NCBI RefSeq assembly: GCF_018140925.1 | Contig: NZ_CP073315.1 | Coordinates: 1,364,001-1,428,000, forward strand | Origin: Psychrobacillus sp. INOP01 | GTDB lineage: Bacteria > Bacillota > Bacilli > Bacillales_A > Planococcaceae | DNA length: 64,000 bases | Direction of reading: 5' to 3' | Notes under the pieces: model-generated | The model's database searches: none | Told to the model about the DNA's origin: nothing | The model's input: the letters and a program-made list of their open reading frames with translations, nothing else | Part shown: positions 2,891 to 52,952 of the stretch, in pieces | Position numbering within the stretch: position 1 is the first letter of the stretch | How the letters are laid out: each line of letters opens with the position of its first letter | Position numbers and translations under genes: made by a program

Positions 2891-2960
2891 ATAATTGCCC
2901 AGTTTGTGTCGGAAATAACATAAACAAACACATCCTTTTGCAGTATCCATAAGTCGCTTT

Positions 2961-3041
2961 CCCTCATAGTCCAGTCATTACGGTGACTTGGTAGAGACGC
3001 TAAAGCCAATCCTTTAGCATATATGGGGATATAATCGTCTA
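2961..3041 (-). promoter_or_regulatory. Guanine-class purine riboswitch upstream of purE
   Basis: On the minus strand the aptamer shows P2 as GCTAAAG pairing with CTTTAGC, the junction GTCTCTACC, P3 as AGTCA pairing with TGACT around the L3 loop CCGTAA, and the J3/1 segment GGACTATG. The C in GACTATG is the base that pairs with guanine or hypoxanthine; adenine riboswitches have T there. Loop L2 reads GATTGG, slightly shorter than the usual GATATGG. The P1 stem has one bulged A. The match to the family is strong. Confidence 0.93.
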
Positions 3042-3052
3042 TTTCTATTCAT

Positions 3053-4840: not shown

Positions 4841-4959
4841 GCACAGCGACGTCCTACTCTCACAGGGGGAGACCCCCAACTACCATCGGCGCAAGAGCTT
4901 AACTTCCGTGTCCGGGGCTGCGAATGCAGATGGGCCGCAGATTTCTTCGTCAGCTGCAC
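4841..4959 (-). rRNA. Divergent 5S-like rRNA, distal tandem copy (possible pseudogene)
   Basis: The 3' two-thirds, from the ACGGAAGTTAAGCTCTT segment to the end, match the true 5S gene of this operon almost base for base. The 5' 45 or so bases are unrelated. Total length is still about 119 nt. The new 5' end can still pair with the 3' strand as helix I (GTGC, AGC and GACG with their complements). Helix II is reduced to AAGA/TCTT, and the usual helix III partner CCGT is absent. A spacer homologous to the 23S-5S spacer precedes it and a terminator follows. It is therefore a whole duplicated module rather than a random fragment. Confidence 0.6.
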
Positions 4960-5098
4960 TCGTTCGATTCTCGCGTATGTTATACGCTCTGAGCCTCTCT
5001 CCATTGCTTCCTTGAACTCTTTGCCCTCTACTTTCTCGCACACTTTCTTATGGAGAAAGACTGCCTACGGCTTATTTGTTCGGATCTAGTATAGACAG

Positions 5099-5135
5099 AA
5101 AAAGCCGTTACCGATAATTCGGTAACGACTTTTTC
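5099..5135 (-). terminator. rrn terminator, middle copy
   Basis: Same stem as the copy at 4796 (CGTTACCGA pairing with TCGGTAACG), followed by a T-run on the minus strand. It ends the middle 5S-like module. Confidence 0.88.
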
Positions 5136-5141
5136 TTTGGT

Positions 5142-5260
5142 GCCCAGCGACGTCCTACTCTCACAGGGGGAGACCCCCAACTACCATCGGCGCAAGAGCT
5201 CAACTTCCGTGTCCGGGACTGCGAATGCAGATGGGCTGCAGATTTCTTCGTCAGCTGCAC
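5142..5260 (-). rRNA. Divergent 5S-like rRNA, middle tandem copy (possible pseudogene)
   Basis: A near-identical sister of the distal copy, offset by about 300 bp. It shares the same non-5S 5' half, including a CTGC-ATTC-GCAG mini-hairpin, and the same upstream spacer with the GCGTATAACATACGC hairpin. The 3' part matches true 5S, with one change (GAGCTCAAC for GAGCTTAAC on the plus strand). The paired 5' and 3' ends, constant length and private terminator argue that the module duplicated as a unit after the 5' half diverged. Confidence 0.6.
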
Positions 5261-5399
5261 TCGTTCGAGTCTCGCGTATGTTATACGCTCCGAGCCTCTC
5301 TCCATTGCTTCCTTGAACTCTTTGCCCCTCTACTTTCTCGCACACTTTTTTATGGAGAAAGACTGCCTACGGCTTTATTTATTCTGTTTTATTATAGAC

Positions 5400-5444: not shown

Positions 5445-5560
5445 GCCCAGCGACGTCCTACTCTCACAGGGGGAGACCCCCAACTACCATCGGCGCTGAA
5501 GAGCTTAACTTCCGTGTTCGGTATGGGAACGGGTGTGACCTCTTCGCCATCATCACTAGA
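5445..5560 (-). rRNA. rrf: 5S ribosomal RNA
   Basis: A 116-nt gene with the standard Bacillus 5S landmarks CGAAGAGGTCACACCCG, CCGAACACGGAAG, TTAAGCTCTTCAGCGCC and GTGAGAGTAGGACG. The 5' TCTAGTGATG pairs fully with the 3' strand as helix I, which fixes both ends. It lies about 190 bp downstream of the 23S gene. Confidence 0.97.
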
Positions 5561-12421: not shown

Positions 12422-12460
12422 AGTATCTCAAGTAAGGGAAGAACTATTCTTCTTCCTCTT

Positions 12461-12533
12461 AATCGTAGTCGAATCATTTACGGTGATTCGGTAGAGACTT
12501 TTGGGCCATATTCCCAACGTTATACGACGACAT
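12461..12533 (-). promoter_or_regulatory. Guanine-class purine riboswitch upstream of pbuG
   Basis: On the minus strand: P1 TCGTA/TACGA, P2 TTGGG/CCCAA with L2 AATATGG, the junction GTCTCTACC, P3 CGAATCA/TGATTCG with L3 CCGTAAA, and J3/1 GACTACG. The C in GACTA marks guanine specificity. All kissing-loop bases are present. Confidence 0.95.
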
Positions 12534-12550
12534 AATTAAATTATGTAAGT

Positions 12551-15893: not shown

Positions 15894-15949
15894 TGTTTTC
15901 TACATCAAAAAGGTGAATGCATATGCCTGAAAAAGACATGACTGCATCC

Positions 15950-16022
15950 ACCTTCATAGTCAAGTTGTTAATGGCAACTTGGTAGAAACATCCGAACCAT
16001 ATCATCGGACATATACGAGGGC
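15950..16022 (-). promoter_or_regulatory. Guanine-class purine riboswitch upstream of guaA
   Basis: On the minus strand: P2 GTCCGA/TTCGGA with L2 TGATATGG, the junction GTTTCTACC, P3 AAGTTG/CAACTT with L3 CCATTAA, and J3/1 GACTATG with the guanine-type C. P1 is weaker than in the other two copies, and L3 has A in place of the usual G. It is still a clear member of the family. Confidence 0.9.
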
Positions 16023-16047
16023 AACATTGGTCATTTTATTTGACTTC

Positions 16048-30944: not shown

Positions 30945-31185
30945 TGCGCCCAGATTTTTATCGAACTCGCTCGATAAATTCCTCTAAAAATCTGTGGCAT
31001 CCCCCGGAGGCTTTGGGCCAACAGGAAGTTGGTCACTCAGGCGTTGCCGCAGGGTGCGGTGAACTTAGCCAGAGTTCCTCGTTCAGCAGGGGTTTGTAGA
31101 CCCCACTGATTTGTATACATACTTTGCATTCATCTCATCACTTATAAGAAGTGGGAGACTTCTGCTCCTGTGTAAGATCGTCGCA
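30945..31185 (+). repeat. Multi-hairpin non-coding element, possibly a transposon end or guide-RNA remnant
   Basis: Successive hairpins on the plus strand are: CAGATTTTT...AAAAATCTG, CCAAC-AGGAA-GTTGG, CCGCA-GGG-TGCGG, GGGGTT-TGTA-GACCCC inside CAG...CTG, and finally AGAAGT-GGG-AGACTTCT. There is no open gene. The series resembles the structured 3' end of IS200/IS605 tnpB elements, where the guide-RNA scaffold overlaps the end of tnpB. No tnpB body is present, however. A dispersed structured repeat is the alternative. It fills the centre of the gap 30724-31725. Confidence 0.45.
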
Positions 31186-38448: not shown

Positions 38449-38553
38449 ATTCGACCGATGTTGAGTGTTATTCGACCGATAATATTATATATTCGATCGA
38501 TTATCACTAACATTTAACCGATTTCTCTCCTTATTCGACCGATTCGCCATTTT
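38449..38553. repeat. 21-bp periodic repeat array 1 (five units)
   Basis: Units start at 38449, 38470, 38491, 38512 and 38533. Each opens with ATTCGACCGAT or a one- to two-base variant (ATTCGATCGAT, ATTTAACCGAT), followed by 10 variable bases. A degenerate unit ATTCTGTCCGATT lies 18 bp before the first. The array sits between the tetR promoter region and the metH terminator. Four of its five units have a counterpart in the array at 44158. Confidence 0.9.
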
Positions 38554-38558
38554 CTACA

Positions 38559-38588
38559 AGAAAACACTGCCAAGATGGCAGTGTTTCA
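38559..38588 (-). terminator. Terminator after metH
   Basis: On the minus strand AAACACTGCC pairs with GGCAGTGTTT around ATCTT, followed by TTC T; it begins within five bases of the stop codon. Confidence 0.85.
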
Positions 38589-38590
38589 TT

Positions 38591-41500
38591 TTAGTCTACG
38601 ACGAAATACCTTGCGTCAGGATGAGCAAATACGATAGCAGAAACAGATGCTTCGGGTTCCATCATAAATTCCTCTGTAAGCTCTACTCCAATTACCTCCG
38701 GTTTTATAAGGCCAAACAGTTTTGCTTGATCATCTAAATTCGGGCAGGCTGGATAGCCAAAGGAGAAGCGTTGTCCTTGGTATTTTGCAGCAAAACGGTC
38801 GCGCATTGTGAAATCCGTTGCATCTGGGAATCCCCATTGGTCTCTAATTTCTTGATGAATGCGTTCGGCAAATCCCTCAGCTAATTCTAGCGCAGTCGCT
38901 TGCAGTGCGTGGCTTTCTAAAAATTTTCCTTTGTCTTTTAGTTTTGCTGCTGCAGCACGAACTCCATGTCCTGCAGTTACCAGCATCAACGCAACATAGT
39001 CCATTTCCCCACTGTCCACAGGCTTTAAATAATCTGCTAAACAAAGGAATGGCAGGGCGGATTGGCGTGGGAATGTGAATCGCTCGATTACTGTTTTCGC
39101 GTCGGTTGGGTCATAGATAATTACATCATCTCCATCCGCTTGCGCAGGGAAAAATTGATATACCCCTTGTGGCTTCAAAATATCCGATTGTAAGTACCCT
39201 GTGACTAATTCATGTAACCCAGTTGCACGCTCGTCACTCTCCGCTAATAGTTTTTCACTATACCCTTTTAACCCTAAATGATGACCGATTAGCGTGCGCA
39301 TATTCACATATGGATGCAAATGGGAGACCGAATAGTCTTTTAATACATGTCTACGAACATCTTTTGGTATATATACCTGAACATCTTCACGTACGGTTTT
39401 CACTGGTTTTTCTAAAATGGCTACGGCCTGCTTAGCTGAGCGATTAGCTTCTGCAATTTTTCGTTTTTCCTGTTGAATACCAAGTTCGACTAATAAAGTC
39501 TCTTTATCCACTTCATTTTGCAAACGATTGGCAAGGTCAAGTCCCTGCATCGCATCTTTCGCATATAATACTGGGCCATCATATTCTGCCGAAATTTTCG
39601 TTTCTGTAAAACGACGAGAAAGTGCTGCTCCACCTACTAGTATAGGCACATCAATACCTGCTTCTTTAAAATCCTGCGCAGTGATGACCATTTGCTGTGC
39701 TGATTTTACAAGTAGTCCAGAAAGTCCGATCATATCCGGCTTTTCCTTCCGAATAACCTCTATTAACGTGGCTGGAGTTACTTTAATTCCAACATCGATT
39801 ACTTTATAACCGTTGTTGCTCAATATAATATCTACAAGATTTTTTCCAATATCATGCACATCGCCTTTAACAGTCGCAAGGACGATTTTACCTTTACCCG
39901 AATCATCCTCTTTTTTCTCCATATACTGCTCCAAGTATGCAACAGAGGCTTTCATTACCCCTGCACTTTGAAGAACTTCGGCAACTATTAACTGATTGTC
40001 ATTAAACAGTCGCCCTACCTCGGCCATACCCTTCATCAATGGACCATTTATGACGTCTAGTGGTGCATCATACATTTGAAGTGCGGCTTCTAAATCTGCG
40101 ATAAGCCCTTCCTTAGTTCCTTCAATAACGTAATAGGCAAGACGCTCGGGGACAGTTTTTGGAATATCATCCTCAGTCTTTTCTTTCTTTTTGTCCCGGT
40201 AAAAATCTGTGAAATCAGCAAGTGTTTGATCAGTCGTTGTAAATAATAGCTCATTAGCCATATCGATTTCCTCTTTAGGAATAGAAGCATATCTTTCAAG
40301 CTTTTCTGTATTTACAATTGCGTAATCCAGTCCCGCCTGTGTGCAATGGTATAAGTAGACAGCATTCAATACTTCACGACCAACAGGTGGAAGACCAAAT
40401 GATACATTACTTACTCCTAAAATAGTTAGAGCTCGTGGCAATTTTTCTTTTATTAGACGAATACCTTCGATCGTTTCTACTGCCGACCCGATATATTGTT
40501 GGTCCCCTGTTCCGACTGGGAATACAAGTGGATCAAAAATTATATCCTCAGGCGCAAGTCCCCATTTATTTACTAATAAATCATAAGAACGCTGTGCGAT
40601 TTCAAGCTTCCGCTGTCTCGTAACAGCCATTCCTAATTCATCGATCGTTCCAACTACTACTGCCGCACCGTATTTTTTCACTAGAGGCATTACTGCTTCA
40701 AATCGCTCTTCCCCATCCTCTAAGTTAATCGAGTTAATAATTGTCTTTCCTTGGGAATATTTAAGTGCTACTTCGATTACCTTTTCATCCGTCGAATCAA
40801 TAACAAGAGGTACTTTAACTTTTTTTACTACTTCTTTCATGAAGTTAGTCATGTCCTCTAGTTCATCACGGTCAGGATTTGCAAGGCAAATATCAATAAC
40901 ATGCGCCCCACCTTTAACCTGTGCTCGCGCAATTTCAGATGCTTCTTCAAACTTTTCATCTACGATTAATCGTTTAAACTTTCGAGAGCCAATTACATTT
41001 GTACGCTCCCCGATGAATAACGGACGCATCGATTCATCGTATTGAAGGGGTTCTATACCGGAAACGACGTGCCCTTGACGACGCCCCGTCTCTACCGGTT
41101 TCCGCGGAGCAAGATCCTTCACTTCTTCACGTACTGCCCTGATATGAGCAGGAGTCGTGCCACAGCATCCACCTACTACATTCAACCATCCTTTTTCCGC
41201 AAAGCCACGGAGCTTTTTAGAAAGTGATTCTGGCGATTCATGATAATGCCCTTCTTCGTCTGGCAAGCCTGCATTTGGATAACAGCTAACATACCCGTCC
41301 GATAACTCAGATAGCGACCGAATATGATCTGTCATAAATTCTGGCCCTGTCGCACAATTCAAGCCAACTGAAAGTGGTTTAATATGTTCGATTGAAATAT
41401 AAAAGGCTTCAATGCTTTGCCCTGCAAGGGTCGTTCCCATTGGTTCGATGGTTCCTGAAATCATAATAGGTAGCTCTTTCTTCAGCACCTCAAATGCCTG

Positions 41501-42034
41501 TTTGATACCTATTGTTGCAGCTTTAACGTTCAGCATATCCTGGCTTGTTTCCAGTAGGATAACATCTACTCCACCTTCTACTAAAGCCTTCGCCTGCACA
41601 TAAAAATCGTTAGTAAGTTCATCAAATGTTATACCACCAGTGACCGACAATGTTTTTGTCGTCGGTCCAATTGCCCCTGCTACAAACCGTGGCCAATCAG
41701 ATGTAGAGAATTCCTTTGCACATGTTTTAGCAAGTTTTGCTGCACAAAAGTTGATATCATGTGCTTGATCACCTAGATCATATTCATTCAATACGACCGG
41801 GGTTCCACCAAATGTATTCGTACAAATAATATCAGCACCAGCCGCTAAATATTCACGATGGACTTGTTCAATAACATCCGGTTTAACGATATTTAAATAT
41901 TCATTACAGCCGTCGTATTCTTCTCCACCGAAATCTTCGGGACTAAGATCCGCATTTTGAATCATCGTTCCCATCGCACCATCAATAATTAGAATTCTCT
42001 CATGGAGTTGCTGCTCAATTAGATGTTTGGACAT
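38591..42034 (-). CDS. metH: Cobalamin-dependent methionine synthase
   Basis: MetH transfers the methyl group of methyltetrahydrofolate to homocysteine through cobalamin. The 1,147-residue protein has all four modules: the homocysteine domain (zinc Cys in GGCCGTTPAHIRAV), the pterin domain (FIGERTNVIGSRKFKRLI), the B12 domain with KGDVHDIGKNLVD (the His is the cobalt ligand), and the AdoMet reactivation domain ending HPDARYFVVD. I use the ATG at 42034, overlapping the yitJ end by 20 bp. It is under the same SAM riboswitch as yitJ and depends on a supply of cobalamin. Confidence 0.95.
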   Translation of the reverse strand: MSKHLIEQQLHERILIIDGAMGTMIQNADLSPEDFGGEEYDGCNEYLNIVKPDVIEQVHREYLAAGADIICTNTFGGTPVVLNEYDLGDQAHDINFCAAKLAKTCAKEFSTSDWPRFVAGAIGPTTKTLSVTGGITFDELTNDFYVQAKALVEGGVDVILLETSQDMLNVKAATIGIKQAFEVLKKELPIMISGTIEPMGTTLAGQSIEAFYISIEHIKPLSVGLNCATGPEFMTDHIRSLSELSDGYVSCYPNAGLPDEEGHYHESPESLSKKLRGFAEKGWLNVVGGCCGTTPAHIRAVREEVKDLAPRKPVETGRRQGHVVSGIEPLQYDESMRPLFIGERTNVIGSRKFKRLIVDEKFEEASEIARAQVKGGAHVIDICLANPDRDELEDMTNFMKEVVKKVKVPLVIDSTDEKVIEVALKYSQGKTIINSINLEDGEERFEAVMPLVKKYGAAVVVGTIDELGMAVTRQRKLEIAQRSYDLLVNKWGLAPEDIIFDPLVFPVGTGDQQYIGSAVETIEGIRLIKEKLPRALTILGVSNVSFGLPPVGREVLNAVYLYHCTQAGLDYAIVNTEKLERYASIPKEEIDMANELLFTTTDQTLADFTDFYRDKKKEKTEDDIPKTVPERLAYYVIEGTKEGLIADLEAALQMYDAPLDVINGPLMKGMAEVGRLFNDNQLIVAEVLQSAGVMKASVAYLEQYMEKKEDDSGKGKIVLATVKGDVHDIGKNLVDIILSNNGYKVIDVGIKVTPATLIEVIRKEKPDMIGLSGLLVKSAQQMVITAQDFKEAGIDVPILVGGAALSRRFTETKISAEYDGPVLYAKDAMQGLDLANRLQNEVDKETLLVELGIQQEKRKIAEANRSAKQAVAILEKPVKTVREDVQVYIPKDVRRHVLKDYSVSHLHPYVNMRTLIGHHLGLKGYSEKLLAESDERATGLHELVTGYLQSDILKPQGVYQFFPAQADGDDVIIYDPTDAKTVIERFTFPRQSALPFLCLADYLKPVDSGEMDYVALMLVTAGHGVRAAAAKLKDKGKFLESHALQATALELAEGFAERIHQEIRDQWGFPDATDFTMRDRFAAKYQGQRFSFGYPACPNLDDQAKLFGLIKPEVIGVELTEEFMMEPEASVSAIVFAHPDARYFVVD

Positions 42035-43874
42035 AGCTGAATTCTCTCTCTTTCTTACGATCAATTTCTTGAATATAATGAATTAACTCGAGGGACATAT
42101 CGTATCTGAAAAATGGCGTAATAATATAAATGCCGTTAAATAGTTCTGCTGCTGTATCAATTAATTCCTTCGATATTTGGATACCTTCTGCAGTAGCACG
42201 CTCTCGATCTTCTCCACATAAACGCATACGTTCCAGCACTTCTTCGGACAATTTAATGCCCGGCACTTCATTGTGAAGAAATTCTGAATTTCGACTATTA
42301 GTCAGTGGCATAATGCCGATGAAAATAGGAGTCGATAAATGCTTGGTCGCTTCATATATTTCATGAATTTTTTCTTTCGAGTACACAGGTTGTGTGATGA
42401 AATAATCCGCTCCACATTCGATTTTCTTCTCTAGTCGCTTCACAGCGCGGTCAAGCACTCGAACATTTGGATTAAACGCGGCAGCTACAGAGAAGTTAGC
42501 TTTTTTACGAAGTGACTTTCCTGAGAAAGAAATACCTTCGTTTAATTGTTTTATTAGCTGAAGTAGTTCTAGACTAGAAACATCATAAACACTCGTTGCA
42601 CCTGGGAAATCACCAATTTTCGTTGGGTCTCCTGTTACAGCAAGAATATCACGAATCCCAAGCGCATCCAGTCCCATTAAATGAGATTGGAGACCGATTA
42701 AATTACGGTCACGGCATGTAATATGAGCAAGGGGACGAATATTTTTTTCATACTTTAACATTGAACCCATTGCCATATTGCTAATACGTGGGGAGGCTAA
42801 TGAATTGTCCGCCATCGTCACTGCATCAACTCCAGTAGCGTATAGCTGTTCCGCACCTTCCATAAACGTTGCCGTATCAAGATGACGAGGGGTGTCTAAT
42901 TCAACAATAATCGTCCGTTCTGTTTTAGCTTTTTCATGAAGGGGTTGTGTGTTAGTCGGCTTGGCATCTTGAATAATAATAGGCTTTCTTGTCTCTACAA
43001 CCTTACTAGTAATAGGTATTAAATGACCAATATGTTTTTTCACTGCTTCGATATGCTTTGGTGTCGTCCCACAGCAGCCTCCTATTAAGCGGACTCCCGC
43101 ATCCCTTAGGTGCAATGCTGCTTTACCGAAATAATCGGCATCGGACTCATAGACAATCCGTCCTTCATCTATATCAAGCAGACTCGCATTCGGATAAGCT
43201 GATAGGAATGCTTTTTCTGGAAGCTTTACTCCTTCAAATGCTTGAATTGTATGATGGGGACCTAGTCGACAGTTGACTCCCACGACATTTGCTCCGATTG
43301 ACTCGAGCTGATGTAGCGCATCATTCAGAGGTAAGCCATTTTGCAAAATACCAGGCTCATGCATAGATACTTGGGCAATGATTGGAATATCAGTTAGTGT
43401 ACGAAGATGAGTCACAGTAGTCTTTAATTCTTCCAAGTCATAATACGTTTCAAGTAACAAACCATCTGGATCTCCCGCTAACAACTGGATTGCCTGCTGA
43501 TCGAGTGAATGGATAATCTCCTGAAGCGAGGCATCACTTTTCCGAATTCCTAGAATACCCCCGATCGTACCGAGGACAAATTGATTGCCTGGTGCAGCAG
43601 CTTTTTTGGCAATTTGGATTGCCGCTTCATTTATTTCTTTCACTTGGTTTTCTAATCCATAGCGTGCCAGCTTAATGGCATTCGCCCCATACGTATTCGT
43701 TTGAATAATATCCGCTCCGGCCGCAATATAGTCTTGATGAATCTTCTCAATAATTTCCGGCTTCTTAATATTCAATTCCTCATTGCAATAGTCAATTCCA
43801 TACGAATAAAGAAGTGTTCCCATTGCCCCATCCGCTGTCAGTATAGACGTCTGTAATTTCTCTAATAAACCCAT
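42015..43874 (-). CDS. yitJ: Bifunctional homocysteine S-methyltransferase / methylenetetrahydrofolate reductase
   Basis: A 619-residue YitJ-type fusion. The first half is a homocysteine methyltransferase barrel with zinc Cys motifs VGVNCRLGP and GGCCGTTPKHIEAV. The second half is a MetF-like FAD reductase (TCRDRNLIGLQSHLMGLDALG, AVTGDPTKIGDFPGATSVYD, CGADYFITQPVYS). The reductase makes the methyl-folate used by MetH, encoded next. The start at 43874 follows GGGAGAGGATGG. A SAM-I riboswitch with terminator controls both genes. Confidence 0.93.
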   Translation of the reverse strand: MGLLEKLQTSILTADGAMGTLLYSYGIDYCNEELNIKKPEIIEKIHQDYIAAGADIIQTNTYGANAIKLARYGLENQVKEINEAAIQIAKKAAAPGNQFVLGTIGGILGIRKSDASLQEIIHSLDQQAIQLLAGDPDGLLLETYYDLEELKTTVTHLRTLTDIPIIAQVSMHEPGILQNGLPLNDALHQLESIGANVVGVNCRLGPHHTIQAFEGVKLPEKAFLSAYPNASLLDIDEGRIVYESDADYFGKAALHLRDAGVRLIGGCCGTTPKHIEAVKKHIGHLIPITSKVVETRKPIIIQDAKPTNTQPLHEKAKTERTIIVELDTPRHLDTATFMEGAEQLYATGVDAVTMADNSLASPRISNMAMGSMLKYEKNIRPLAHITCRDRNLIGLQSHLMGLDALGIRDILAVTGDPTKIGDFPGATSVYDVSSLELLQLIKQLNEGISFSGKSLRKKANFSVAAAFNPNVRVLDRAVKRLEKKIECGADYFITQPVYSKEKIHEIYEATKHLSTPIFIGIMPLTNSRNSEFLHNEVPGIKLSEEVLERMRLCGEDRERATAEGIQISKELIDTAAELFNGIYIITPFFRYDMSLELIHYIQEIDRKKEREFSYVQTSN

Positions 43875-43894
43875 TTGTATCCATCCTCTCCCAT

Positions 43895-43925
43895 ATAAAA
43901 AAGCCTTCCATGAAAAGAAGGCTTT
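43895..43925 (-). terminator. SAM riboswitch terminator before yitJ
   Basis: On the minus strand AAAGCCTTCTTTTCATGGAA plus GGCTTTTTT forms a stem AAAGCCTTC/GAAGGCTTT (one bulge) with a T-run, placed between the S-box aptamer and the gene. Confidence 0.92.
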
Positions 43926-43946
43926 ACGAGTATGCAAGATACCACC

Positions 43947-44056
43947 TTCTCATCTTTCAAACTTTTGCAAAGTCTGCTGGATTTAGCACCTGACCAATTA
44001 ATTGGCTGGTTGCTGAAGCGTCGTAGGGCCAGTCCCTCGGCTTCTCTTGATAAGAA
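43947..44056 (-). promoter_or_regulatory. SAM-I (S-box) riboswitch
   Basis: On the minus strand: P1 TTCTTATC/GATGAGAA, then AAGAGAAGCCGAGGGACTGG, CCCTACGACGCTTCAGCAACC, AGGTGCTAAATCCAGCAGAC, and TTTGAAAGATGAGAA. These are the conserved S-box blocks, including the k-turn and the SAM-binding GCTAAATCC segment. High SAM should shut down yitJ-metH. Confidence 0.96.
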
Positions 44057-44084
44057 TTTCACTATTCAATTTTCTATTAGACAT

Positions 44085-44113
44085 ATCGTACCTTTATTCA
44101 ACTAAAGCGTCAA
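44085..44113 (-). promoter_or_regulatory. Promoter of yitJ-metH
   Basis: TTGACG (44113-44108) and TACGAT (44090-44085) on the minus strand, 17 bp apart, about 25 bp upstream of the riboswitch. Confidence 0.78.
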
Positions 44114-44157
44114 GATATGTTTTGAATTTTCTATACACTTCGAGCGAGAAAATAATG

Positions 44158-44283
44158 ATTCGACCGATGTTGAGCGTTATTCAACCGATAATATTATATA
44201 TTCGACCGATATGACCAACTATTCGACCGATTATCACTCACATTCAACCGATTCTTACTCGTATTCGACCGATTCCTGCTTTT
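44158..44283. repeat. 21-bp periodic repeat array 2 (six units)
   Basis: Units begin at 44158, 44179, 44200, 44221, 44242 and 44263, exactly 21 bp apart. Each starts ATTCGACCGAT (or ATTCAACCGAT) and ends in 10 variable bases. The last unit runs into the stop codon of the NERD gene. The first two variable parts (GTTGAGCGTT and AATATTATAT) equal those of array 1 with at most one change. The third unit (ATGACCAACT) is absent from array 1. Confidence 0.92.
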
Positions 44284-45226
44284 ACTTCCACTTCCATGTA
44301 TAAATTGTGTTTTTACCATTTCCACTTTTCACTAAATTCATTGAGTTTAAGATTCGACAAGCAGATTGTGAAGTATCCAGATGAAGAAATTTCTTACATT
44401 GCCGATTCTTAATTGTCTTCCCAATTAAAACAAACCACTCTCGAATCGCTTTCTCATGTGCTAGCCTGTCTACATGACCACAACGCTTACAGTTCCAACC
44501 ATTCTTCTTTTTCTCTATGCCAAACACTCCACATTTTTCACAGCACACTCCAGTGTGTAAATCATTTGGATGGATGCCCCACCGACTACACATTGGATAT
44601 GGAAAGTAAGGTTTGTGACTTGTAACGATTTCTTTACTCAATGCATGCATATCATTGCTAGACATACACTGTTTTTCGAGAGGAATTTTACGTAAATAGA
44701 CAGGAATTGTTTGATGAAGAATAGCATTATATTTTGTGGGAGGTTCTATAACTCTAACTTTGAAGTTTGTTAATACAATTACTCCGTAAATAGGAATTGT
44801 CACACTTCGTTGTTTCATCCATTCGTCGAGTAAATAAATATTACGTTCAATCTGTATCTCGGGACTCTCAAATACATCCACTTTACCTTCTTCATTTTCT
44901 CTTTCTAATTGATAAGGATTTTCCTTAAAGCTCAACTTCCCTCCTATATTCTTACTCTCTAAAACCACTGCAAAATGCTGCGTCAAAAACACTGTATCAA
45001 TCTGAAATTTCCCATACGATTCCAAACTTACATCGTGCAACACCACATATTCAAACGGAAATGAATACTTATGAAACACCTCGTCCACTCGAAATTCCCC
45101 ATGAATCCCTGCCATCGCCAAATGCATTTTCGAACGAATTAATTCCTTCAACTCATGCATCTCTGGCAATCGCCGATCCAATAGTTGCAACCCAAAATAG
45201 CTATACTCTTCAGTACGCACTTTCAT
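44282..45226 (-). CDS. NERD domain protein with a C-terminal zinc ribbon
   Basis: A 314-residue protein. The NERD (nuclease-related) domain spans about residues 35-150, with GIHGEFRVDEVF, FQIDTVFLTQHFAVVLESKNIGG and the Glu-x-Lys pair of the nuclease core. A zinc-ribbon-like module CCEKCGVFGI plus WNCKRCGHVD follows near residue 235, then a short winged-helix-like end. NERD proteins are thought to process DNA or RNA; targets are unknown. I prefer the ATG at 45226 after GGGGTGA over the longer frame. Array 2 touches its 3' end in place of a terminator. Confidence 0.75.
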   Translation of the reverse strand: MKVRTEEYSYFGLQLLDRRLPEMHELKELIRSKMHLAMAGIHGEFRVDEVFHKYSFPFEYVVLHDVSLESYGKFQIDTVFLTQHFAVVLESKNIGGKLSFKENPYQLERENEEGKVDVFESPEIQIERNIYLLDEWMKQRSVTIPIYGVIVLTNFKVRVIEPPTKYNAILHQTIPVYLRKIPLEKQCMSSNDMHALSKEIVTSHKPYFPYPMCSRWGIHPNDLHTGVCCEKCGVFGIEKKKNGWNCKRCGHVDRLAHEKAIREWFVLIGKTIKNRQCKKFLHLDTSQSACRILNSMNLVKSGNGKNTIYTWKWK

Positions 45227-45312
45227 TATCAATAGATCACCCCATCCGCATCGTATCACAACCTTAATAATTGTAAATTCCACCAAATAAGCAACTATTT
45301 CATTTTCCCCAT

Positions 45313-52803: not shown

Positions 52804-52852
52804 AAAAAAAGCCTGGAAGAAAACTGTTAAACAGTTTCTCCCAGGCTTTTAT
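52804..52852 (-). terminator. Guanidine riboswitch terminator
   Basis: On the minus strand AAAGCCTGGGAGAAACTGTT pairs with AACAGTTTTCTTCCAGGCTT, then a run of T. Its 5' strand includes the last conserved piece of the aptamer (AAAGCCTGGGAGA), so ligand binding would prevent the terminator. Confidence 0.92.
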
Positions 52853-52930
52853 CCTTCCGTGACACAGCAAAGCTGCGAGTTTTCTCTCGGACCAGGCCAA
52901 CCCCAATGGTTGCGGAACCCTAGAAAACAT
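52836..52930 (-). promoter_or_regulatory. Guanidine-I (ykkC) riboswitch
   Basis: Conserved blocks on the minus strand are TCTAGGGTTCCGC, GGCCTGGTCCGAGAG, ACTCGCAG...CTGTG, TCACGGA and GGATAAAAGCCTGGGAGA. These are the hallmarks of the ykkC RNA that senses guanidine and turns on exporter genes. Confidence 0.94.
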
Positions 52931-52952
52931 TTTTAATATCCAGTTAGCTAAA

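What the first reader, a model, noticed from the sequence alone, without database searches (positions are those of the whole stretch)
38449..44283. Two related arrays of an 11-mer repeated every 21 bp exactly, flanking yitJ-metH
Five units at 38449-38553 and six at 44158-44283 each begin ATTCGACCGAT (small variants) and carry 10 variable bases. The period is 21 bp with no slippage, two turns of B-DNA, so all motifs face the same side. The variable parts also correspond between arrays in order, with one extra unit in the second. The arrays thus share descent while only the 11-mer and the spacing are kept, which suggests selection by a DNA-binding protein or an RNA structure. Both lie just after the 3' end of a minus-strand gene, and array 2 runs into a stop codon.
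Basis: partly seen in the sequence, partly recalled or inferred. Interest (0 to 1): 0.78.

Follow-up and report, generated by a model that had tools for sequence, protein, structure and literature searches.

The report
Nuclease paired with phased DNA arrays
Two short DNA arrays whose motif recurs every two turns of the double helix belong to a genome-wide set of such arrays, and one of them abuts a nuclease gene whose relatives in many other Bacilli usually also sit beside such an array, often with a different motif, which suggests an undescribed nuclease-and-repeat system.

Summary
Confirmed to the base: five units at 38449-38553 and six at 44158-44283, every step 21 bp. They are two of 8 array sites with this motif in a Psychrobacillus genome. 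In orthologous arrays of sister species the motif is kept and the spacers are not (28 of 240 against 74 of 180 positions differ, G000-G007). Arrays sit at gene 3' ends, often between convergent genes.

The telling neighbour is not yitJ-metH but the gene array 2 runs into (44282-45286, minus): a NERD nuclease with a zinc ribbon and a predicted winged helix. Relatives occur in 236 of 261 family genomes, often as several paralogs. In a scan that assumes no motif, 68 of 83 such loci have a 20/21-bp array in the flank, against 4 of 40 control chunks. In those 68 the catalytic residues are nearly invariant.

Reading: a nuclease with cognate arrays that works like REP/RAYT but has unrelated parts. 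Binding and cutting are inferred. Against: in G007 the array beside the best NERD hit has another motif than the dispersed arrays; motif and protein similarity correlate only among close homologs. My paper searches (open-licence PMC) found no description.

The parts
38449..38553 (+). Array 1: five 21-bp units, 11-mer ATTCGACCGAT (0-2 changes) plus 10 variable bases
   Evidence: orthologous array with four units in G007
44158..44283 (+). Array 2: six 21-bp units of the same motif; the last unit overlaps the stop codon of the NERD gene
   Evidence: orthologous array with six units in G005
44282..45286 (-). NERD nuclease - zinc ribbon - winged helix protein, 334 aa from a TTG start. The true start may be the ATG of residue 21 (45226): residues 1-22 have pLDDT below 50
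   Evidence: PF08378 E 4.7e-13; cysteines 249, 252, 266, 269; AlphaFold mean pLDDT 85.5; homologs beside arrays
38562..38586 (-). Hairpin after metH, between the metH stop and array 1; probable terminator, a neighbour and not part of the system
   Evidence: read from the sequence

Best explanation
The arrays are the cognate DNA sites of the adjacent NERD-zinc ribbon-winged helix nuclease, one member of a multicopy family of nuclease-plus-array pairs in Bacilli. Shown here: phased arrays in many places of the genome; constraint on motif and spacing; placement at gene 3' ends; a 20/21-bp array beside most members of this protein family, with motifs that differ between lineages and paralogs; conserved catalytic residues. 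Inferred: the protein binds the 11-mers side by side on one face of the helix (21 bp is two turns), probably through its winged helix; cutting at arrays followed by recombinational repair renews, swaps and spreads them; copies remain where they do least harm, at gene ends; protein and motif change together. In outline it works like REP sequences with their RAYT nuclease.
For: Constraint on the motif. Spacing: (629 of 730 steps in 68 NERD-adjacent loci are 20 or 21 bp). Place: 25 of 45 array sites convergent against 18 of 102 other intergenic regions, 2 of 45 against 35 of 102 divergent. Partner found by comparing all genes near arrays. Scan that assumes no motif, score 7 or more at period 20 or 21: 27 of 30 best NERD hits, 20 of 23 further paralogs, 21 of 30 loci from other families, 4 of 40 control chunks. 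Two of the four control hits carry the motif found beside a NERD paralog of the same genome (G012 L248, G178 L242). Two-sided arrays are in direct orientation in 17 of 17 countable loci. E64, D97, K112 in 68 of 68, E110 in 67 of 68. Among 16 Psychrobacillus genomes whose best NERD locus was scanned, the three with ATTCRACCGAT beside NERD are all rich in that class, against 1 of the other 13 (p 0.007); the two with RACCGACCGAT beside NERD are the only two with that class, 2 of 2 against 0 of 14 (p 0.008). Where NERD has another motif, four orthologous ATTCRACCGAT arrays (G003, G004, G008, G015) are shorter or worn.
Against: No binding or cutting was tested. G007 is rich in ATTCRACCGAT arrays, yet the array beside its best NERD hit is ATCGATCGATT-like with a single ATTCGACCGATT unit; its other paralogs were not examined. 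Motif and protein similarity correlate weakly over all pairs (rho 0.13) and not significantly below 60% identity, and no domain stands out. 15 of 83 loci have no array at this threshold. The loci are not independent: 16 of the 30 best hits are Psychrobacillus and at least nine share both flanking genes. Two control arrays in G130 could not be assigned to a paralog. Step sizes other than 20/21 give little further support for helical phasing (36 of 101 near a multiple of 10.5, 22% expected by length alone; 19 and 40 are common).
Confidence: 0.6

Rival explanations
1. Host-serving operator or insulator arrays: a chromosomal protein (NERD or another) coats them to stop read-through at convergent genes or to shape the nucleoid; no selfish spread is involved.
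For: Enrichment between convergent genes and depletion in divergent ones; constraint on motif and spacing; long retention at orthologous sites, including one site with different motif versions in two clades.
Against: Does not explain the nearly invariant nuclease residues, the many paralogs with different motifs, or the blockwise replacement of arrays with flanks 93-99% identical. Avoidance of promoters is also expected for tolerated selfish DNA.
Confidence: 0.22
2. Plain minisatellites that copy by slippage and unequal crossing-over; the NERD gene is only a frequent neighbour.
For: Several differences in unit number between orthologous arrays are 21 or 42 bp; alternating spacers suggest 42-bp duplications.
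Against: Motif far more conserved than spacers; tight 21-bp spacing despite diverged spacers; association with one protein family, 68 of 83 against 4 of 40.
Confidence: 0.08
3. A 7-codon coding repeat or an RNA element in 3' untranslated regions.
For: 21 is a multiple of 3; in G012 one strand folds better than shuffles (mean z -2.16).
Against: No ORF of 80 aa or more covers either window array; steps of 20 bp here and of 19, 20 and 40 in other classes; no strand preference relative to transcription; no Rfam match at the arrays.
Confidence: 0.03

Closest known systems
REP/BIME repeats with RAYT transposases (PMC2817692; abstract and outline seen)
   Same: Dispersed extragenic repeats with a cognate nuclease-type gene flanked by them; lineage-specific sequences; proposed coevolution of protein and repeat; per the abstract, presence of a rayt correlates with abundance of its REPs.
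   Different: RAYTs are IS200/IS605-related and flanked by REPs in inverted orientation (abstract). Here the protein is NERD-zinc ribbon-winged helix, the repeats are phased direct arrays with variable spacers, and two-sided flanks are in direct orientation.
TAACTGA direct repeats of Beggiatoaceae, Cyanobacteria and Bacteroidetes (PMC4679880; abstract and outline seen)
   Same: Short intergenic direct-repeat sets spread through a genome.
   Different: One heptamer shared across taxa, mostly just upstream of start codons, thought to act on translation. Here motifs vary, sites are at gene 3' ends, and a nuclease gene is associated.
BldC on direct repeats in Streptomyces (PMC5859096; abstract and outline seen)
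   Same: A model for head-to-tail cooperative binding of one protein to tandem direct repeats.
   Different: MerR-like regulator at promoters; no nuclease; no dispersed arrays at gene ends.
SmdA, a NERD-domain protein of S. aureus (PMC9040797; passages seen)
   Same: Has a partial NERD domain; the authors say NERD function in bacteria had not been studied before.
   Different: A membrane protein of cell division; no array is mentioned in the passages seen.
Homing endonuclease genes and STAR-type dispersed repeats (both recalled, no call)
   Same: A nuclease gene sitting within copies of its target; short motif repeats dispersed between genes.
   Different: Here the presumed target is a long array still present on both sides in 18 loci, and the motifs differ from the staphylococcal STAR core as I recall it.

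Membership tests
REP/RAYT system | Associated protein is an IS200/IS605-related tyrosine transposase | tested here: not met
   Pfam gives NERD (PF08378) for the window protein and three homologs, no transposase family
REP/RAYT system | Gene flanked by two repeats in inverted orientation | tested here: not met
   Direct orientation in 17 of 17 loci that could be counted
REP/RAYT system | Cognate repeats dispersed in extragenic DNA | tested here: met
   8 sites in the own genome, intergenic placement; motif match to a paralog for 2 of 4 control arrays
REP/RAYT system | Protein and repeat coevolve | tested here: inconclusive
   Similar motifs among close homologs (7 of 7 pairs at identity 0.8 or more, 23 of 42 at 0.6-0.7), no significant correlation below 0.6; G007 does not fit
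NERD-domain proteins (PF08378) | Match above the Pfam gathering score | tested here: met
   50.1 bits against 22.1
Active PD-(D/E)XK-type nuclease | Conserved acidic residues and lysine | tested here: met
   D97, K112 and E64 in 68 of 68, E110 in 67 of 68. That these are the catalytic set is recalled. Foldseek's best hits are nucleases but none reaches E 0.001; activity was not tested
CRISPR array | Cas genes beside the array | tested here: not met
   Window neighbours are metH, yitJ-type, NERD and protoporphyrinogen oxidase genes; spacers of about 10 bp; one of the four NERD proteins has only a sub-threshold match to a Cas12f-like domain (0.14)
Known anti-phage defence system | PADLOC model match | tested here: not met
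   0 families for four NERD proteins. NCBIfam gives only matches far below cut-off to a defence kinase (16.4 against 460 bits)
Transcription-factor operator array | Placement in promoter regions | tested here: not met
   2 of 45 sites are divergent and 25 are convergent; the 18 co-directional sites do lie upstream of one gene
Homing endonuclease | Gene inserted into its own recognition site, with empty sites elsewhere | tested here: inconclusive
   Arrays on both sides in 18 loci; empty sites not resolved

The most novel reading that the evidence does not exclude
An undescribed class of nuclease-repeat systems, widespread in Bacilli: each NERD-zinc ribbon-winged helix paralog reads its own helically phased array, and array-directed cutting and repair lets the arrays, and at times the gene, spread and renew themselves. 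One genome then holds several orthogonal protein-DNA pairs whose specificity changes quickly, in effect a natural library of retargeted DNA-binding nucleases.
Probability: 0.42. Interest if true: 0.9.

Novelty: categorically new. Interest (0 to 1): 0.8.

Why it matters
If true, it accounts for a whole class of dispersed intergenic arrays in Bacilli, gives a role to a large orphan branch of NERD proteins, and offers many natural pairs of a DNA-reading nuclease and its target for learning how specificity evolves. It would be a second, unrelated case of a chromosomal nuclease-repeat partnership beside REP/RAYT, so that the question why such pairs persist can be tested on independent examples.

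Tried and rejected
Coding heptad: no ORF of 80 aa or more over the window arrays, and 19/20-bp steps in related classes. RNA element. Spo0A box: considered from memory because of TTCGACC, dropped because the versions in other lineages lack it. Phage or plasmid origin: the window NERD protein has no match in the plasmid or phage collections at E 1e-5, and the two-unit pattern none in viral contigs. Which domain reads the motif: Mantel tests by domain do not differ. Empty sites: the printed part (its output was cut) has four rows without NERD between the flanks; the two that hit the window involve the 5S rRNA region and are ambiguous; the other two hit one locus of G043 where the two flank genes are 16-19 bp apart, but that locus has its own NERD gene beside them. 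Helical multiples beyond two turns: weak. A match of the G000 array at 1029528 to paralog L241 is suggestive only (shared core CGCAAGT).

Controls and their limits: the controls were biased (four of the loci had been chosen by the pattern) and were replaced by 40 chunks at round coordinates. In one search the reversed pattern also hits several genomes; such hits have the same 21-bp period by construction, so that control is not clean there. The 80 genomes were picked by hand and include pattern-positive ones, so 27 of 80 is not a prevalence. One search printed 40 matches, of which 30 had loci and 23 of these were new. The G012-G018 part stopped with an error after 12 pairs, so no total is given. 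Dropped before counting: L102 and L190 as weak; L102 and L084 do not appear among the 45 sites, where G000/G007 orthologs count twice, four arrays in one gap of L109 count once and the orientation of the palindromic G130 motif is arbitrary. In one search I compared 3 of 3 with 1 of 16 and 2 of 2 with 0 of 17 genomes, but only 16 genomes had been scanned; one search gives the corrected tests. A search of papers for six motif strings listed 20 of 21 papers; none was opened.
Full report
OBSERVATION. Both arrays are present as described. The window is G000:C1:1364001-1428000 of a 4.30-Mb single-contig genome. The own genome has 8 sites of this motif: the two in the window and those at 1069354, 1182157, 1730424 (two units), 3185217, 4039082 and 4066564. 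At up to 2 mismatches the two-unit pattern is in 9 of 61 genomes, own genome included, all of this genus. A sequence-only profile of four units matches 18 of 19 genus genomes at E 0.1, many weakly, and 34 of 200 family genomes at E 0.001, in 10 of 19 genera. In the 85,000-species collection the exact pattern has 12 stretches: seven in named Psychrobacillus, one in an unnamed MAG, and single matches in four unrelated bacteria.

ANATOMY. The fetched arrays keep the period while the motif changes by lineage: ATTCRACCGAT in G000, G005, G007 and G010; RACCGACCGAT in G012 and G018; AATCGAACGAT in G130; a GGCCGAT version in G178; ACACGATCGAT in G134. Of 232 steps in five genomes 226 are 21 bp and 6 are 20 (only 20-22 allowed). 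With spacing free from 4 to 34 there are 133 matches in the genus, nearly all printed rows being two 21-bp steps. The first 12 positions of a unit hold 18-20 bits and the last nine 1.9-3.5 bits.

SELECTION. In arrays with orthologous flanks, motif positions (12 per unit) differ at 28 of 240 and spacers (9 per unit) at 74 of 180 for G000-G007 (4 array pairs); 41 of 216 against 68 of 162 for G000-G005 (3 pairs); 19 of 120 against 53 of 90 for G005-G007 (2 pairs). Several differences in unit number are 21 or 42 bp. Two G012/G018 sites with flanks 93-99% identical differ at 1 of 72 and 7 of 60 motif positions but at 21 of 54 and 24 of 45 spacer positions, as if arrays are swapped as blocks. One site, with the same genes on both sides, has the G000 version of the motif in G000, G005 and G007 and the other version in G012 and G018 (L104 and L094).

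PLACE. 25 of 45 array sites lie between convergent genes, against 18 of 102 other intergenic regions of at least 100 bp in the same loci (p 8e-6); 2 of 45 against 35 of 102 are divergent (p 6e-5); co-directional sites are 9 in each orientation (with crude gene calls). So 43 of 45 sites have at least one gene 3' end facing them and there is no strand preference, which argues for a DNA-level element. RNA folding gives little for the window's genome.

THE PARTNER. When all genes near arrays were compared across loci, one family recurred in unrelated surroundings: the gene that array 2 runs into. Homologs lie next to arrays in G004, G005, G007, G010, G012 (48% identical), G130 (27%) and G178 (34%). 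It has a NERD domain and four zinc-ribbon cysteines. In the AlphaFold model (mean pLDDT 85.5, pTM 0.77) the C-terminal part runs helix, strand, helix, helix, strand, strand, as in a winged helix (the name is my reading). Foldseek's best solved folds are nucleases such as the BspD6I subunits, R2 endonuclease and Bax1, but none reaches E 0.001. A profile of eight such proteins matches 236 of 261 family genomes at E 1e-10, often several times.

TEST. I scanned NERD loci (gene plus up to 1.5 kb on each side) for periodic arrays at periods 14-32 without giving a motif. Score 7 or more at period 20 or 21: 27 of 30 best hits (one per genome), 20 of 23 further matches from 7 genomes, 21 of 30 loci from other families. 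Chunks of 4 kb at round coordinates: 4 of 40. Fisher p against these controls: 9e-12, 1e-9, 2e-7; loci related by descent make these too small. The control hits are informative: one in G012 has TTTATGGG, the complement of the motif beside G012 paralog L248; one in G178 has a 20-bp array with the complement of the motif beside G178 paralog L242. The two in G130 were not assigned. Three hits with NERD but no zinc ribbon or winged helix in the matched stretch have no array. Arrays lie on the 3' side only in 35 loci, on the 5' side only in 15, on both in 18, and 15 have none. Two-sided arrays are in direct orientation in 17 of 17 countable loci; similar motifs keep their orientation relative to the gene in 40 of 42 pairs, both exceptions involving the palindromic G130 motif (pairs not independent). 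E64, D97 and K112 are present in 68 of 68, E110 in 67, each zinc cysteine in 67 or 68.

LIMITS AND RESULTS AGAINST. G007 is rich in ATTCRACCGAT arrays, but the array at its best NERD hit is ATCGATCGATT-like with one ATTCGACCGATT unit. Motif and protein similarity correlate over all pairs (rho 0.13, 0-2 of 500 permutations as high) but not significantly below 60% identity, and no domain is favoured. The share of pairs above the 95th percentile of motif similarity is 25 of 1080 at identity 0.2-0.3, 23 of 42 at 0.6-0.7 and 7 of 7 at 0.8 or more. Sixteen of the 30 best hits are Psychrobacillus and at least nine share both flanking genes, although among those nine the array motifs differ. Steps other than 20/21 add little for helical phasing.

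MECHANISM. Most likely the protein recognises its own phased motifs. The conserved active site, the blockwise turnover of arrays and the many paralogs suggest that cutting and repair renew and spread the arrays, as has been proposed for RAYT and REP (PMC2817692, abstract). Binding, cutting and spread are inferences. A host role at convergent gene ends is the main rival.

KNOWN OR NEW. Not REP/RAYT (other protein, direct instead of inverted flanks), not CRISPR, no PADLOC match for four of the proteins, no Rfam match at the arrays. I found nothing in print that links NERD proteins to repeat arrays, nor a description of such arrays; these hold open-licence PMC papers only, and listings were seen, not whole papers. 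I call it categorically new as a combination of parts, while it works like a known kind.

Noticed in passing
G000:C1:1029528-1029595 (L158): A second class of array in the own genome, AATCGCAAGTT every 21 bp (four units); its core CGCAAGT resembles the array beside NERD paralog L241 at 2934203.
   Followed up: partly
G010:C1:3515281-3515930 (L109): Four arrays in one intergenic gap, at intervals of about 200 bp, with pieces of the NERD gene's 3' end repeated between them.
   Followed up: no
G000:C1:3261550-3262463 (L258): A broken NERD paralog in two pieces; the same two flank genes hold a NERD gene in G549 of another family.
   Followed up: partly
window 4860-5320: Two stretches that repeat the sequence of the 5S rRNA region (5445-5560) upstream of it; Rfam reports only the one 5S at gathering score.
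   Followed up: no
window 52836-52934, 2947-3046, 12446-12547, 15937-16038, 43947-44056, 31018-31084: Guanidine-I, three purine and one SAM riboswitch, and a Bacillaceae-1 RNA; the SAM riboswitch lies between array 2 and the yitJ-type gene.
   Followed up: no
L305 (G130:C3, near 1006700) and L306 (G130:C3, near 505000): Two 21-bp arrays met by chance in control pieces, motifs GAATGTTAAGCAAAC and AGCGGCTCACTC, not assigned to a NERD paralog.
   Followed up: no
L195 (G007:C11:44100-50200): Two arrays of this class in opposite orientation in one convergent gap.
   Followed up: no
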